Assembly (NCBI RefSeq): GCF_030317105.1
Contig: NZ_JASZYG010000002.1
Coordinates: 806,001-870,000 of the forward strand
Reading direction: 5' to 3'
DNA from: Variovorax brevis
GTDB taxonomy: Bacteria; Pseudomonadota; Gammaproteobacteria; Burkholderiales; Burkholderiaceae_C
DNA: 64,000 nucleotides
Shown: in pieces, positions 60,156 through 64,000 of the stretch
How the letters are laid out: each line of letters begins with the position of its first letter
How positions within the stretch are numbered: position 1 is the stretch's first letter
The notes under the pieces: model-generated
Databases searched by the model: none
The model's input: the letters and a program-made list of their open reading frames with translations, nothing else
What the model was told of the DNA's origin: nothing
Position numbers and translations under genes: made by a program

Positions 60156-60346
60156 GCGGTGCTCCGGGCAATCGGATGTGAGTGGAGCGACGAATGTCTC
60201 ATGGATTCGAAAGCGGGGTGAACGCGCAAGCGCGCATGCACAACACAAGCACGACACACACGCAGCGCACACATGCGAGTGCTGCCGAATGGCCCCCCAC
60301 ATAAGTCTGCGCTCGCTATTACTTTTGCCGTATTTGATTCACAACG

Positions 60347-60371
60347 CTGCGCGCGCAGACTGCGTGCGCAG
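60347..60371. promoter_or_regulatory. Tandem 12-bp palindromes upstream of the tail-sheath gene
   Basis: CTGCGCGCGCAG (60347-60358, a perfect palindrome) and CTGCGTGCGCAG (60360-60371, one base different) follow each other with a 13-bp period. They lie 53 bp before the sheath start, after a short AT-richer stretch (60317-60343). They could be a regulator-binding tandem site or a 5'-UTR hairpin. Inference from sequence only. Confidence 0.45.
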
Positions 60372-60424
60372 ATCAAGAGGGCGGCGTCATTCGTGACGAA
60401 GTTGTCATAAATCAGGAGGCACAC

Positions 60425-62059
60425 ATGCCAGCGGCATTGACTTATCCCGGCGTTTACATCCAGGAAGTTCCCAGCGGCGTGCGCACGATCACCGGGGTCG
60501 CGACGTCGATCACGGCCTTCGTCGGACGCGCATCCGCAGGGCCGACCAACGACCCCGTCATGCTCACCAGCTATGCCGACTTCGAGCGCCGCTTCGGCGG
60601 GCTCGACGTGGCGAGCCCCATGAGCTATTCGGTGCGCGACTTCTACATGAACGGCGGCAGCCTCGCGCTCATCGTTCGCGTGGCGCACGAAGACGCGACC
60701 GCGGCGACCATCACGCTCACCGGCGCGGGCAGCCCGGCCGCGGACCTGGTGCTTGAAGCCACCAGCGTCGGCGAGTGGGGCAACGGGCTGAGCGCGGCGG
60801 TTGACTACGACACCGACCGTTCCTTGCCGCGCACCTCACCGCCTTCGACCAACGAACAACGCTTCAACCTCACCGTGCGCTATCGCCCGAGGGCGGGGCG
60901 CGACGAGTTCGTCATCGAGACCTTCAGCTCGGTCTCCACCGTGGATGGCGATCCACGCTTCCTGCCGCGTGTGCTCGAGCGCGAGTCGGCCTACGTTCGC
61001 GTGCAGGGCGCGATGCCTTCCAGCCGGCCTGCGTCCAACGTGACGACGGTGGGCCAGCAGCGCACCATCACATGGGTCGACGCCGACGCCGACTCGGGAG
61101 CCGACGGCTCCGACATCGACGACGACGACGTGATCGGCGAGCAGTCCGCGAAGACGGGCATGTATGCGCTCAACCGCGCGGACCTGTTCAACCTGCTGTG
61201 CATCCCGCCGCTGGCGCGCGATTCGAGTGCGCTGCCCTCGAGCTACACGCCGACCTCGGCCGCTGTGTACCAGGCAGCGCTGGCGCTGTGCGTGCAACGC
61301 CGCGCGATGCTGCTGGTCGACCCTGATCCGGTGTGGGCGTCGTCCATCGACCAGGCCATCGACAACGCCATCGACGGGCGCGTGGACCTCAACCTGAGTG
61401 GACCGGCAGCGCGCAACGCAGCGCTCTACTTTCCGTGCGTGCGCCAAGTCGATCCGCTGCGCGACAGCCGCGTCGACACCTTCGTGCCCTGCGGCATCGT
61501 GGCGGGCGTGATCGCACGCACCGACGTTGCACGCGGCGTGTGGAAGGCGCCGGCAGGTCTCGACGCCACGCTCGATGGCGTGCAGGACCTGCAGGTCAAC
61601 CTGAACGACCTGGAGAACGGACAACTCAATCCGCTGGGCATCAACTGCCTGCGCTCCTTCGGCGTCAACGGCCGCCTGGTGTGGGGCGCGCGCACGCTGC
61701 GTGGCGCCGACGAAAGCGCCGACGAATACAAGTACCTGCCGGTGCGACGTCTCGCGCTGTTCCTGGAAGAAAGCCTTTACCGTGGCACGCAATGGGTCGT
61801 CTTCGAGCCCAACGACGAGCCGCTGTGGGCGCAGGTGCGGCTGAACGTCGGCGCCTTCATGCAGGGCCTGTTCCGCCAGGGCGCCTTCCAGGGAAGCTCG
61901 CCGCGCGATGCGTACTTCGTCAAGTGCGACAGCCAGACGACCACGCAGAACGACATCAACCTCGGCATCCTGAACGTCATCGTCGGCTTTGCGCCGCTCA
62001 AGCCTGCCGAATTCGTCGTGGTCCAGATCCAGCAGATGGCTGGCCAGATCGCCACCTGA
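60425..62059 (+). CDS. Contractile tail sheath protein (phage/eCIS type)
   Basis: A 544-residue sheath subunit of a contractile tail-like machine. The N-terminal TYPGVYIQEVPSGVRTITGV and TAFVGRASAGP and the C-terminal SSPRDAYFVKCDSQTT followed by GFAPLKPAEFVVVQIQQ are the hallmark ends of phage-tail-sheath-family proteins, including those of extracellular contractile injection systems. AGGAGG sits at 60412-60417, ideally spaced. Single sheath gene followed by a tube gene; no capsid or packaging gene is visible nearby. It is read away from the nitroreductase gene and starts the cluster. Confidence 0.95.
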   Translation: MPAALTYPGVYIQEVPSGVRTITGVATSITAFVGRASAGPTNDPVMLTSYADFERRFGGLDVASPMSYSVRDFYMNGGSLALIVRVAHEDATAATITLTGAGSPAADLVLEATSVGEWGNGLSAAVDYDTDRSLPRTSPPSTNEQRFNLTVRYRPRAGRDEFVIETFSSVSTVDGDPRFLPRVLERESAYVRVQGAMPSSRPASNVTTVGQQRTITWVDADADSGADGSDIDDDDVIGEQSAKTGMYALNRADLFNLLCIPPLARDSSALPSSYTPTSAAVYQAALALCVQRRAMLLVDPDPVWASSIDQAIDNAIDGRVDLNLSGPAARNAALYFPCVRQVDPLRDSRVDTFVPCGIVAGVIARTDVARGVWKAPAGLDATLDGVQDLQVNLNDLENGQLNPLGINCLRSFGVNGRLVWGARTLRGADESADEYKYLPVRRLALFLEESLYRGTQWVVFEPNDEPLWAQVRLNVGAFMQGLFRQGAFQGSSPRDAYFVKCDSQTTTQNDINLGILNVIVGFAPLKPAEFVVVQIQQMAGQIAT

Positions 62060-62094
62060 AACACCCAGCCAACAAGAATCAAGGGGACAAGGTC

Positions 62095-62622
62095 ATGGCA
62101 CAGTTCAGCGTCAACGCGCAGCGCTTCGATCCGTACAAGAACTTCAAATTCCGGGTGAAGTGGGACGGCCGCTATGTGGCGGGCATCTCGAAGGTGGGCG
62201 CGCTCAAGCGCAGCACCGAGATGGTGGAGTTCCGCGAGGGCGGCGACCCATCGAGCACGCGCAAGCTGCCGGGCCGCACCAAGTTCGAACCCATCACGCT
62301 GGAGCGCGGCGTCACGCACGACACCGAGTTCGAGAAGTGGGCCAACAAGGTCTGGAACTACGGCTCGGGGCTGGGTGCCGAGGTGTCGCTGAAGGACTTC
62401 CGCAAGGACCTGATCATCGAGGTCTATAACGAAGCCGGGCAGCTCGTGATTGCGTACAAGGTGTATCGCTGCTGGGTGTCCGAATACCAGGCGCTGCCTG
62501 ACCTGGACGCCAACGCCAACGCCGTCGCGATCCAGACCATCAAGCTCGAAAACGAAGGCTGGGAGCGCGACTACGACGTGGTCGAGCCTTCGGAGCCTCG
62601 CTTCACCGAGCCGGCGAACTGA
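62095..62622 (+). CDS. Tail tube protein (T4 gp19-like)
   Basis: A 175-residue inner tube subunit. NFKFRVKWDGRYVAGISKVG at the start, then LKRSTEMVEFREGGDPSSTRK, PGRTKFEPITLERGVTHDTEF and the ending IKLENEGWERDYDV are the conserved tail-tube (gp19/Hcp-like) pattern. The start ATG 62095 follows GGGGACAA. It lies 35 bp behind the sheath gene, the usual sheath-then-tube order in phage tails and eCIS. A second tube paralogue, as found in eCIS, would be expected further downstream. Confidence 0.94.
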   Translation: MAQFSVNAQRFDPYKNFKFRVKWDGRYVAGISKVGALKRSTEMVEFREGGDPSSTRKLPGRTKFEPITLERGVTHDTEFEKWANKVWNYGSGLGAEVSLKDFRKDLIIEVYNEAGQLVIAYKVYRCWVSEYQALPDLDANANAVAIQTIKLENEGWERDYDVVEPSEPRFTEPAN

Positions 62623-62634
62623 TGGGGCTTCGCC

Positions 62635-63348
62635 ATGCGTTCGCTGCGAGCCGCCGATGTTCTGGCGCTCTGGGAGAGTGGCGCGCAACGCCACGCACTC
62701 GATCGCGGCGCACTGCTGTGCGCCTGGGCCCGGCCCGACCTGCCGCCTGACACCGTCGTCGACCTGCCGCTGGGTGTGGTCACGCGGGAACTGCTGAGCT
62801 TGCGCGAGGCGAGCTTTGGCGCGGCGATTCACAGCCATGTGGATTGCGGTGCGTGCGGTGAGCGCTTGTCGGTCGCGTTGCGCGCCAGCGAAGTCTTGCA
62901 AGCCGCGGACGATGACGAAGCTGCGCGGGACATCGAGTTGCACGGCACGCGGCTGCGTGCACTTTCGCTGCGCGACTTGGCTGCGGTGGCTGATGAACTC
63001 GATGCTGCGCATGCAGCGCGTCAATTGCTGGCGCGCTGCGCGGCGTTGGGTGAACCATCAACGTTGCAGGACTGGCCGGACGAATGGGTGGCGCAGGCCG
63101 AGGAAGCCTTGGAGCGCCTCGACCCCAACGCCGACATCGCGCTCGATGTGCAATGCCAGAGCTGCGGTCAGCACAGCACGGCGCAGCTCGACGCATCGGC
63201 CCTGCTGTGGGACGAGATCGATGCACGTGCCCGAAGCCTGCTGGCCGAAGTGAACGTGCTGGCGCGCGCCTACGGCTGGAGCGAAGCAGAAATACTCGCG
63301 CTCACCCCCACGCGCCGCGGGGCCTACCTGTCGATGGTGGATGCATGA
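62635..63348 (+). CDS. Tail-cluster protein with two CxxC pairs, probable structural or assembly component
   Basis: A 237-residue, Ala/Leu-rich and acidic cytosolic protein. Two CxxC pairs, in HVDCGACGERL (about 79-85) and VQCQSCGQH (about 178-184), could together bind a zinc ion. I recall similar double-CxxC proteins placed right after the tube gene in contractile-injection clusters, sometimes compared with small phage baseplate proteins, but I cannot verify the family. It starts 12 bp behind the tube gene and overlaps the next start by 4 bp. Confidence 0.8.
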   Translation: MRSLRAADVLALWESGAQRHALDRGALLCAWARPDLPPDTVVDLPLGVVTRELLSLREASFGAAIHSHVDCGACGERLSVALRASEVLQAADDDEAARDIELHGTRLRALSLRDLAAVADELDAAHAARQLLARCAALGEPSTLQDWPDEWVAQAEEALERLDPNADIALDVQCQSCGQHSTAQLDASALLWDEIDARARSLLAEVNVLARAYGWSEAEILALTPTRRGAYLSMVDA

Positions 63349-64000
63349 ACGGATTGCTGCATCGACTGGCCGCACGCGCATCGGGCACGGCTGTGCTGGT
63401 GCGTTCCGATGCGCGCTTGCCGAATGCGCGTGCAGGGCTGCCGTGGAATGACAACGCGGATGCGGGGCAAGAGGTGGAAGCAGCAGTGAATGAAAAGGCG
63501 GCGGCGCAGAGAGAAGTGACGCGCAGTCGTGCAGCGCCGCCGGTGGCGAAGGCTTCGCCGGCCGAGCGTGCGACTGCTGCCAAGCCCGCCAGCGCAGCGG
63601 ACAAGCCCGCCGCGTTGGATGTCGCTGGACCGCAGACCGTGCGCGCCCCTAACGCGCCCCAAGCACTTCGACCGTCAGTCGCTCAGCCCGCGATGCAGCA
63701 CGTACCAATGTTCGGCCGAATCGACGATTCACCATCGACGGATGCCGCATCTGCGCAGCAGCCAACAACCGCCGCAGTCCAACAAGCACCCGCGAAGCCT
63801 CATCAACGCGCCGCCGACCACCCCGACGCCACACCCGTCGCGCCGATGCATCGCAGCCCGACCCCGTTGATGCCATCACGCCCCGCGGTCGAGGCAACGC
63901 AACCAGCCCTTCGCACGAACCCACAACGCGACACGTGGCAACAAGCCGCATCCAGAACGCCCGCCACCGAAGGGCAGGGCGCAGAGGTCCACGTCCACAT
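63345..64000 (+). CDS. Pro/Ala-rich protein of the tail cluster, truncated by the window edge
   Basis: An open frame from ATG 63345 (overlapping the previous stop as ATGA) runs to the end of the window without a stop, giving more than 218 residues. It begins NGLLHRLAARASGTAVLVRSD and then becomes low-complexity, rich in Ala, Pro, Gln, Arg and Thr, with no signal peptide or membrane segment. The last visible residues, GQGAEVHVH, resemble the short C-terminal VHVHIGRIEV-like ends I recall from proteins at this position in eCIS clusters (uncertain). The protein continues past base 64000. Confidence 0.78.
   Translation, partial: MNGLLHRLAARASGTAVLVRSDARLPNARAGLPWNDNADAGQEVEAAVNEKAAAQREVTRSRAAPPVAKASPAERATAAKPASAADKPAALDVAGPQTVRAPNAPQALRPSVAQPAMQHVPMFGRIDDSPSTDAASAQQPTTAAVQQAPAKPHQRAADHPDATPVAPMHRSPTPLMPSRPAVEATQPALRTNPQRDTWQQAASRTPATEGQGAEVHVH

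What the first reader, a model, noticed from the sequence alone, without database searches (positions are those of the whole stretch)
60425..64000. Start of a contractile tail-like gene cluster, possibly an eCIS
Sheath, gp19-like tube, a double-CxxC protein and a Pro/Ala-rich protein follow each other with tight or overlapping spacing on one strand. The genes just before are ordinary chromosomal ones (DmeF-like exporter, nitroreductase); no integrase, capsid, terminase, portal, holin or endolysin is visible. This fits the beginning of an extracellular contractile injection system or tailocin, but the window ends before the baseplate, spike, AAA ATPase and toxin genes. The order and the overlap ATGA at 63345-63348 suggest a single operon.
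Basis: partly seen in the sequence, partly recalled or inferred. Interest (0 to 1): 0.85.

Follow-up and report, generated by a model that had tools for sequence, protein, structure and literature searches.

The report
Complete bacterial phage-tail-like injection machine
The genes at the window's end begin a complete set for a harpoon-like, phage-tail-derived protein injector of a known type found in many environmental bacteria; the unusual parts are an unknown cargo gene and a floppy protein of fairly constant length that might set the harpoon's length.

Summary
I read past the window end in the same contig (a Variovorax genome). The cluster runs from 60425 to about 87410 on the + strand: sheath, tube, double-CxxC protein, Pro/Ala-rich protein, Pvc16-type cap, AAA+ ATPase, small conserved protein, cargo slot, CIS_tube, LysM-like, hub, spike, PAAR-like tip, gp25, two TIGR02243 baseplate proteins, Tail_P2_I-like protein, DUF6519 fibre, then two glycosyltransferase-like genes. 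No phage head or lysogeny gene was recognised. A Streptomyces plasmid has the same 18-gene order. It is a new member of the DUF6519 (eBAP5) eCIS type.

Additions: (i) the double-CxxC protein's predicted fold matches T4-like phage baseplate hub assembly proteins; (ii) the Pro/Ala-rich protein is a conserved family with a disordered middle, found in 32 of 33 loci at 231-311 aa, and could be the missing length ruler (speculative); (iii) this cluster's cargo slot lacks the usual DUF4157 protein and holds an orphan protein with a weak JAB-like motif plus a PepSY-like neighbour, possibly effector and immunity protein; (iv) the genome has a second eCIS-like cluster with a DUF4157 protein. The system type is ordinary; the ruler and cargo ideas are testable.

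The parts
60425..62059 (+). g1 contractile sheath (544 aa)
   Evidence: Phage_sheath_1C 2e-08; best solved relative 8bky, S. coelicolor CIS sheath, 6e-77
62095..62622 (+). g2 inner tube, gp19 family (175 aa)
   Evidence: Phage_T4_gp19 5.8e-48; 72% identical to the tube of a Streptomyces plasmid eCIS
62635..63348 (+). g3 double-CxxC protein, like T4-type baseplate hub assembly proteins (237 aa)
   Evidence: T4_baseplate 8.5e-05, below cut-off; phrog_150 4.9e-06; all four Cys invariant in 27 of 27 aligned; AF2 pLDDT 92.7; Foldseek to phage 'baseplate hub assembly protein' 7.0e-08; no PDB match at 0.001
63345..64000 (+). g4 Pro/Ala-rich protein with conserved ends (257 aa; the gene runs past the window end to 64118). 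The rest of the cluster, g5 to g18, lies downstream of the window at 64115-87410 in continued numbering and is listed in the full report
   Evidence: conserved N and C ends, variable middle; same position in 32 of 33 loci

Best explanation
A complete extracellular contractile injection system (eCIS) of the DUF6519-fibre type, encoded by one + strand cluster of about 27 kb. Likely working, inferred from the families: hub (g10), spike (g11) and PAAR-like tip (g12) assemble with help from the double-CxxC g3, a likely relative of T4-like hub assembly proteins. gp25 (g12b) and two J-like proteins (g13, g14) form the wedges. g9 and g9b start the tube. The tube (g2) and sheath (g1) polymerise, and the Pvc16-type cap (g5) ends them. 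The AAA+ ATPase (g6) helps load cargo (g8). The DUF6519 fibre (g16), held by the Tail_P2_I-like g15, binds a target; the sheath contracts and drives the tube and cargo in. Shown: gene content, order, conservation, and the predicted g3 fold. Inferred: assembly, loading, firing, target.
For: Sheath, tube, cap, ATPase, CIS_tube, spike, gp25, two TIGR02243 proteins and the DUF6519 fibre each match their family. Gene-by-gene synteny with a Streptomyces plasmid eCIS annotated with DUF4255, DUF4157 and DUF6519: 15 of 18 of its proteins match ours by blastp at 0.05; of the other three, two (the g4 and g7 equivalents) fit by place and one is its DUF4157 cargo. g9 to g13 have relatives in 78-80 of 80 loci, g14 in 73, g15 in 66 and g16 in 58, the loci ending soon after (the best 80 of 375 stretches found with the hub). 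The sheath is nearest to the S. coelicolor CIS sheath among solved structures. A DUF4157 cargo gene lies between ATPase and CIS_tube in 58 of 64 loci where both are visible. No phage relatives of g3 or g10 by tblastn.
Against: This cluster itself has no DUF4157 protein, the usual eCIS cargo marker. Some families are below Pfam's cut-off here: Tail_P2_I, PAAR, T4_baseplate, tail_X. No sigma-70-like promoter was found at 60200-60500. Nothing shows that particles are made or released. A cytoplasmic CIS like that of Streptomyces is not excluded.
Confidence: 0.95

Rival explanations
1. It is a cytoplasmic, self-acting CIS as in Streptomyces: particles stay inside and fire at the producer's own membrane, giving regulated cell death.
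For: The nearest solved sheath is S. coelicolor CIS (6e-77), described as cytoplasmic (PMC10066040, passages only). No lysis gene was recognised in the cluster.
Against: Streptomyces clusters of that paper lack a conventional tail fibre, whereas this one has a 1156-aa DUF6519 fibre, a domain proposed as a baseplate-anchored receptor-binding fibre (PMC12923769, section 6).
Confidence: 0.15
2. A tailocin (phage-tail bacteriocin) that kills by membrane puncture without cargo.
For: Phage-tail gene set without recognised head genes.
Against: AAA+ ATPase, Pvc16-type cap and a cargo slot that in relatives holds DUF4157 proteins; no lysis cassette recognised.
Confidence: 0.03
3. A degenerate prophage whose tail genes remain.
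For: Tail genes are phage-like.
Against: All 21 called genes are open reading frames without internal stops, the order is conserved across phyla, and neither g3 nor g10 has a tblastn relative in 50,697 phage records.
Confidence: 0.01
4. The glycosyltransferase-like genes g17 and g18 are unrelated chromosomal genes that merely follow the cluster.
For: Not seen after the fibre in the relatives' regions read (output partly cut); in the 80 loci only one short g17 match and no g18 match, but most of those loci end near the fibre gene.
Against: g17 starts 3 or 69 bp after the fibre gene. Of 90 other Variovorax genomes only one (G012, 62% complete) has g18, and it carries the closest relative of this eCIS found (85% at g10); its DNA similarity to ours ends inside g18 and the following genes differ. 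Contig breaks in G012 leave linkage unproven.
Confidence: 0.5

Closest known systems
DUF6519 (eBAP5) eCIS, e.g. the cluster on Streptomyces sp. NBC_00299 plasmid NZ_CP108040.1
   Same: Same order of 18 genes from sheath to DUF6519 fibre; eBAP5 is described from 658 genes (PMC12923769 section 6).
   Different: The cargo slot holds g8 and g8b instead of a DUF4157 protein; two glycosyltransferase-like genes follow.
Streptomyces coelicolor CIS (subtype IId)
   Same: Nearest solved sheath (8bky 6e-77, 8bl4 2.6e-74; 9ezm, not looked up, follows closely at 2.4e-73); also described as lacking a typical tape measure protein.
   Different: No conventional tail fibre there; this cluster has a DUF6519 fibre and a PAAR-like tip.
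AlgoCIS, AFP, PVC (clades Ia/Ib)
   Same: Sheath, tube, cap, AAA ATPase, baseplate logic (partly recalled).
   Different: More distant sheath (Pvc2 1.2e-44, Afp3 3.3e-40); AFP has the length regulator Afp14, while no tape measure family was recognised here.
T4 gp26/gp51-like hub assembly proteins
   Different: TM-scores only about 0.3-0.6, no PDB match at 0.001. Which T4 protein it equals is not settled.

Membership tests
eCIS | contractile sheath plus gp19 tube | tested here: met
eCIS | AAA+ ATPase and Pvc16/DUF4255 cap | tested here: met
eCIS | hub, spike, PAAR, gp25, J-like baseplate | tested here: met
   hub by conservation and position only, PAAR below cut-off
eCIS | no phage head, packaging or integration genes | tested here: met
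   not every flanking ORF was scanned
eCIS | DUF4157 (eCIS_core) cargo protein in the cluster | tested here: not met
   only hit in the genome is on C8, in the second eCIS-like cluster; no hit in g1-g18. Frequent marker, not in every locus: 58 of 64 by my own HMM
eCIS | particles released and injecting a target | not testable with these tools
   needs microscopy
DUF6519/eBAP5 eCIS | DUF6519 fibre downstream of baseplate genes | tested here: met
   6.3e-72
DUF6519/eBAP5 eCIS | Tail_P2_I adaptor gene | tested here: inconclusive
   Tail_P2_I 0.0022 and TIGR02242 0.009, both below cut-off
DUF6519/eBAP5 eCIS | largely lacks an Afp12 homologue (PMC12923769 section 8) | tested here: inconclusive
   two TIGR02243 genes present; not tested which is Afp12-like
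tailocin | lysis cassette, no AAA ATPase | tested here: not met
   AAA present, no lysis gene recognised
prophage | capsid, terminase, portal, integrase | tested here: not met
   none recognised among scanned genes
T6SS | TssJLM membrane complex and ClpV in the cluster | tested here: not met
   no such family in the scanned cluster genes; rest of the genome not searched
JAB/JAMM metallopeptidase (g8) | E, HxH, SxxD motif and family-level match | tested here: inconclusive
   motif recalled and matched by eye; Prok-JAB 0.074, below cut-off

The most novel reading that the evidence does not exclude
g4, the Pro/Ala-rich protein, is the length ruler of eCISs that lack a classical tape measure protein: an intrinsically disordered chain of fairly constant length, anchored by its conserved N end and its conserved C end, encoded directly before the cap gene. 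It would work like a Pro-rich ruler rather than a coiled-coil tape. In the same cluster, g8 plus g8b would be a cargo protein lacking DUF4157 with a JAB-like enzyme part and a PepSY-type inhibitor as immunity protein.
Probability: 0.15. Interest if true: 0.75.

Novelty: new member of a known kind. Interest (0 to 1): 0.42.

Why it matters
eCISs are natural protein injectors. Only one paper of the library holds both 'contractile injection system' and 'DUF6519' and none holds both 'contractile injection' and 'Variovorax', so this gives a clean full gene set of a little-studied type in a soil genus. It also names a concrete candidate for an open problem: what sets particle length in systems reported to have no typical tape measure protein. 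Two searches for a disordered or proline-rich ruler in eCISs found no such report (0 papers; 1 paper, by its title on a phage tail tube; listing only).

Tried and rejected
Empty-site comparison: the flanking nitroreductase (matches in 57 of 91 Variovorax genomes at 1e-60, own included) and K+ transporter (90 of 91 at 1e-100, own included, list cut) were compared by place. In one genome, G081, a nitroreductase (61%) and a K+ transporter (49%, not its best match to ours) lie about 110 bases apart on one strand with no eCIS gene between; but in our genome the two are divergent, and no other of 13 flanking proteins of ours matches within that 20 kb. I take this as no proof of an empty site. Of the 13, only DUF1330 matched (37%) in the relatives' eCIS regions, in G023, so the insertion places differ.

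Relatives of g8: whole g8 gave 11 other genomes of 399 in the order, all weak (1.8e-5 or worse) and mostly over the Ala-rich part, which I judge chance. The C-terminal part alone gave 7 other genomes of 398 in the phylum at 0.01, at best 2.5e-4, plasmid matches only at 0.7-0.8, no viral relative and one chance PDB match at 0.93. The nearest relative G012 (62% complete) has only a match at 0.6. g8b: one plasmid match at 0.8, a Pseudomonas hypothetical protein. Whether g8 keeps a remnant of DUF4157 was tested and rejected. PHROG hits of g8 to a tape measure protein (0.082) and an internal virion protein (0.023) lie over the Ala-rich part and were set aside.

Idea that the cargo is the ruler, as suggested by the tape-measure-related effector Tme of S. 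davawensis (PMC11126660, passages): disfavoured, since the slot in L064 and L121 shows only a g7-like ORF (above 75 aa) and ORFs with DUF4157 in the slots run from 299 to 1591 aa.

g7: 21 members against Pfam, no family in more than one member. g3 profile against PDB: one match at 0.77; fold against PDB: nothing at 0.001. In two eCIS papers, terms JAB, DUF4329 and PepSY had no occurrence where asked and JAMM one, in 'jammed'. A search for gp51/gp26 with contractile injection systems listed 10 of 41 papers, none read.
Full report
What was given and what is there. The window is G000:C12:806001-870000 of an 8.59 Mb genome in 83 contigs; the contig continues to 913724, that is window position 107724. 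I read on in the same contig and continue the window numbering below.

Gene content. From 60425 to 87410 I called 21 genes on the + strand by hand from ORFs, codon-position GC and family matches, so start codons are tentative (g9 uses GTG; g17 may start at 83641 or 83707). In order: g1 sheath 60425-62059; g2 gp19 tube 62095-62622; g3 double-CxxC 62635-63348; g4 Pro/Ala-rich 63345-64118; g5 Pvc16_N cap 64115-65443 (4.2e-45); g6 AAA+ ATPase with a WHD 65440-67374 (6.2e-26); g7, 88 aa, 67371-67637; g8, 301 aa, 67672-68577; g8b, 83 aa, 68574-68825; g9 CIS_tube 68844-69500 (2.9e-06); g9b tail-X/LysM-like 69500-69862 (0.0036, below cut-off; phrog_46 baseplate hub 0.00018); g10 hub 69852-70994 (no family match; weak solved relative VgrG 9rce 0.00048); g11 OB spike 71080-71589 (5.9e-18); g12 DUF4280/PAAR-like 71603-71923 (7.9e-05 and 0.0011, below cut-off); g12b gp25 71923-72297 (1.3e-18); g13 and g14 TIGR02243 72380-74875 and 74882-77851 (5.5e-79, 3.5e-58); g15 Tail_P2_I-like 77848-80151 (0.0022, below cut-off); g16 DUF6519 fibre with a YCF48/BNR stretch 80167-83637 (6.3e-72, 4.6e-20); g17 glycosyltransferase 83707-86613 (1.7e-17 and 3.1e-13 for two domains); g18 86610-87410, glycosyltransferase-like by my reading, without a family match. 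Flanks are ordinary: EamA transporter, acetyltransferase, glyoxalase-like, cation efflux and nitroreductase before; K+ transporter, racemase, acetyltransferase, DUF1330, methyltransferase, AI-2E transporter and ornithine cyclodeaminase family after, plus one protein without a match on each side. No capsid, terminase, portal, integrase or lysis gene was recognised among the scanned proteins; ORFs were listed to 101977 but not all were scanned.

Conservation. The hub g10 was sought in 150 related genomes: 17, own included, have it. A scan of genome contigs (84,980 species) confirmed 375 stretches that encode relatives of the hub, of which the best 80 were kept; named hosts include Variovorax, Hydrogenophaga, Pseudomonas, Halomonas, Nitrosomonas, Azospirillum, Ruegeria, a Chitinophagaceae bacterium, Calothrix, a Chloroflexota MAG and a Methanosarcinales MAG. 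In these 80 loci tblastn at 1e-3 finds g9b, g10, g11 and g12 in 80, g12b in 79, g9 and g13 in 78, g14 in 73, g15 in 66, g6 in 64, g16 in 58, g5 in 55, g7 in 37, g3 in 36, g4 in 30, g2 in 26, g1 in 18, g17 in 1 (a short match, not examined), and g8, g8b and g18 in 0. The loci reach at most 10 kb to each side of the hub, so the low counts at both ends are partly truncation. A Streptomyces plasmid (NZ_CP108040.1) has the same 18 genes in the same order, annotated with DUF4255, DUF4157, baseplate J, gp25 and DUF6519; 15 of its 18 proteins match ours at 0.05, its g3 has both CxxC pairs and its g4 (288 aa) ends with a similar motif, while its g4 and g7 give no blastp match. The g3 and hub proteins match none of 50,697 phage records; 10 plasmid records hold a hub relative at 1e-5.

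Placing it. Among solved structures the sheath is nearest to 8bky and 8bl4 (6e-77, 2.6e-74), the S. coelicolor CIS of subtype IId, with 9ezm (not looked up) close at 2.4e-73; PVC and AFP sheaths are further. The tube's nearest solved relatives are instead All3324 of 7b5h (3e-18; the thylakoid-anchored CIS of Anabaena, recalled) and 7adz (1.5e-17), with 8bl4 weak at 0.0043, so the placement near S. coelicolor rests on the sheath alone. DUF6519 is the eBAP5 fibre anchor of Nachmias et al. 2026, found by them in 658 genes (PMC12923769, sections 6-8 read). So this is a member of a described eCIS type. Geller et al. 2021 (PMC8213781; sections 6, 10 and 13 read) give the core list: tube, spike, sheath, baseplate, DUF4255, AAA and DUF4157.

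g3. The four cysteines are invariant in 27 of 27 aligned members, some of whose starts I chose by alignment and which leave out truncated hits (33 loci had a blastp hit; 26 were aligned with ours). AlphaFold2 gives pLDDT 92.7. Foldseek finds no PDB match at 0.001 but 41 predicted viral proteins at 0.001, led by 'baseplate hub assembly protein, bacteriophage T4-like' (7.0e-08) and including a Gp26 hub subunit and a 'hub assembly catalyst'; TM-scores are moderate. I read g3 as a hub assembly chaperone with two CxxC pairs; zinc binding is inferred.

g4. In 33 loci where g3 and g5 are both found by blastp, 32 have an ORF between them that fits, 231-311 aa, mean 261, sd 20; L052, which holds some N, had none that met the test. 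In that count I took the start codon nearest the g3 stop, so the lengths follow the g3-g5 distance in part by construction. Own g4 has 257 aa. In 21 members caught by motif, length is 231-289 (CV 5.6%), the middle is hardly more alike than shuffled sequence (27.7 against 25.7% identity), while the first 36 residues (46 against 23%) and the C end (56 against 22%) are conserved. Those 21 were chosen by motifs in the very ends, so the conservation of the ends is partly by selection. AlphaFold2 on the Variovorax OV329 member gives a disordered chain (pLDDT 56) with a short helix at each end. Mean length differences grow with hub divergence from 7 to 29 aa and then are 22 in the most distant class, consistent with bounded length but also with ordinary slow drift; five other proteins of the cluster are more constant (CV 0.5-3%), so constancy alone proves nothing. 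Position: in Mu and P2 tails (recalled, not from a call) the tube gene is followed by an assembly chaperone and the tape measure; g3 and g4 take those places. No tape measure family was recognised in the cluster at the cut-offs used. This is why I offer g4 as a ruler; it is a hypothesis.

Cargo slot. Between ATPase and CIS_tube, a DUF4157 protein was found in 58 of 64 loci by an HMM that I built from 7 relatives' ORFs. Of the other 6, L098 and L104 have one in an ORF outside my limits, L086 has masked sequence, and L064, L096 and L121 have none. Here the slot holds g8 and g8b instead, and the genome's only DUF4157 match is on another contig. The C-terminal part of g8 has E, HTH and SxxD residues in the order of JAMM/JAB enzymes (motif recalled) with a Prok-JAB match at 0.074, below cut-off. 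g8b has a PepSY match at 0.0067, below cut-off; PepSY domains are known as peptidase inhibitors (recalled). The two genes overlap by 4 bases. Effector plus immunity is a reasonable but weakly supported guess. eCIS toxin-immunity pairs are known (PMC8213781 section 13), and one eCIS effector class without DUF4157 is described (Sle1, PMC13277306, passages).

Glycosyltransferases. Of 91 Variovorax genomes, own included, only own and G012 have g18 at 1e-20; for g17 at 1e-60 only own, G012 (C-terminal piece, at a contig end) and a partial match in G002. G012 also has the closest hub (85%), but its contigs break between the two. The DNA similarity ends about 100 bases before the g18 stop and the following genes differ. 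They may be accessory genes that modify the particle or the cell surface.

Borders. No clean empty site was found; one genome, G081, has a nitroreductase next to a K+ transporter, but in another orientation and without our other flanking genes.

Verdict. Observation confirmed, interpretation supported, type known. What is worth a second look is the ruler candidate and the DUF4157-free cargo slot.

Noticed in passing
G000 contig C8:8183-37621, - strand (loci L011, L012): A second, different eCIS-like cluster in the same genome, with its own sheath, CIS_tube, AAA+ ATPase, Tail_P2_I protein and a 1504-aa DUF4157 (eCIS_core) protein; 8 proteins of the contig were scanned.
   Followed up: partly
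G000 contig C8:49736-59704, - strand (L008, L009): A 3322-aa ORF matching the TcA subunit of Tc toxin complexes (TcA_TcB_BD 7.3e-114), about 12 kb from the second eCIS-like cluster.
   Followed up: no
window numbering continued, 84320-84454 (L010:10320-10454), inside g17: An imperfect palindromic repeat (46-nt arms, 72% complementary) lies inside the glycosyltransferase gene without breaking its frame; it looks like a dispersed repeat element, which was not tested.
   Followed up: no
L096, L097, L113, L130 and G113 relatives: More distant relatives have longer g4 proteins (297-311 aa in L096, L097, L113 and L130); cargo proteins of L096 and G113 lack DUF4157 by HMM or by eye and end in glycine-rich hydrophobic repeats.
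   Followed up: no
L030 (G070), L034 (G063), L036 (G044), upstream of the sheath: In three Variovorax relatives a sigma-54-activator-like ORF (by my reading of the sequence) lies upstream of the sheath gene; none is seen in the ORFs listed upstream in this genome.
   Followed up: no
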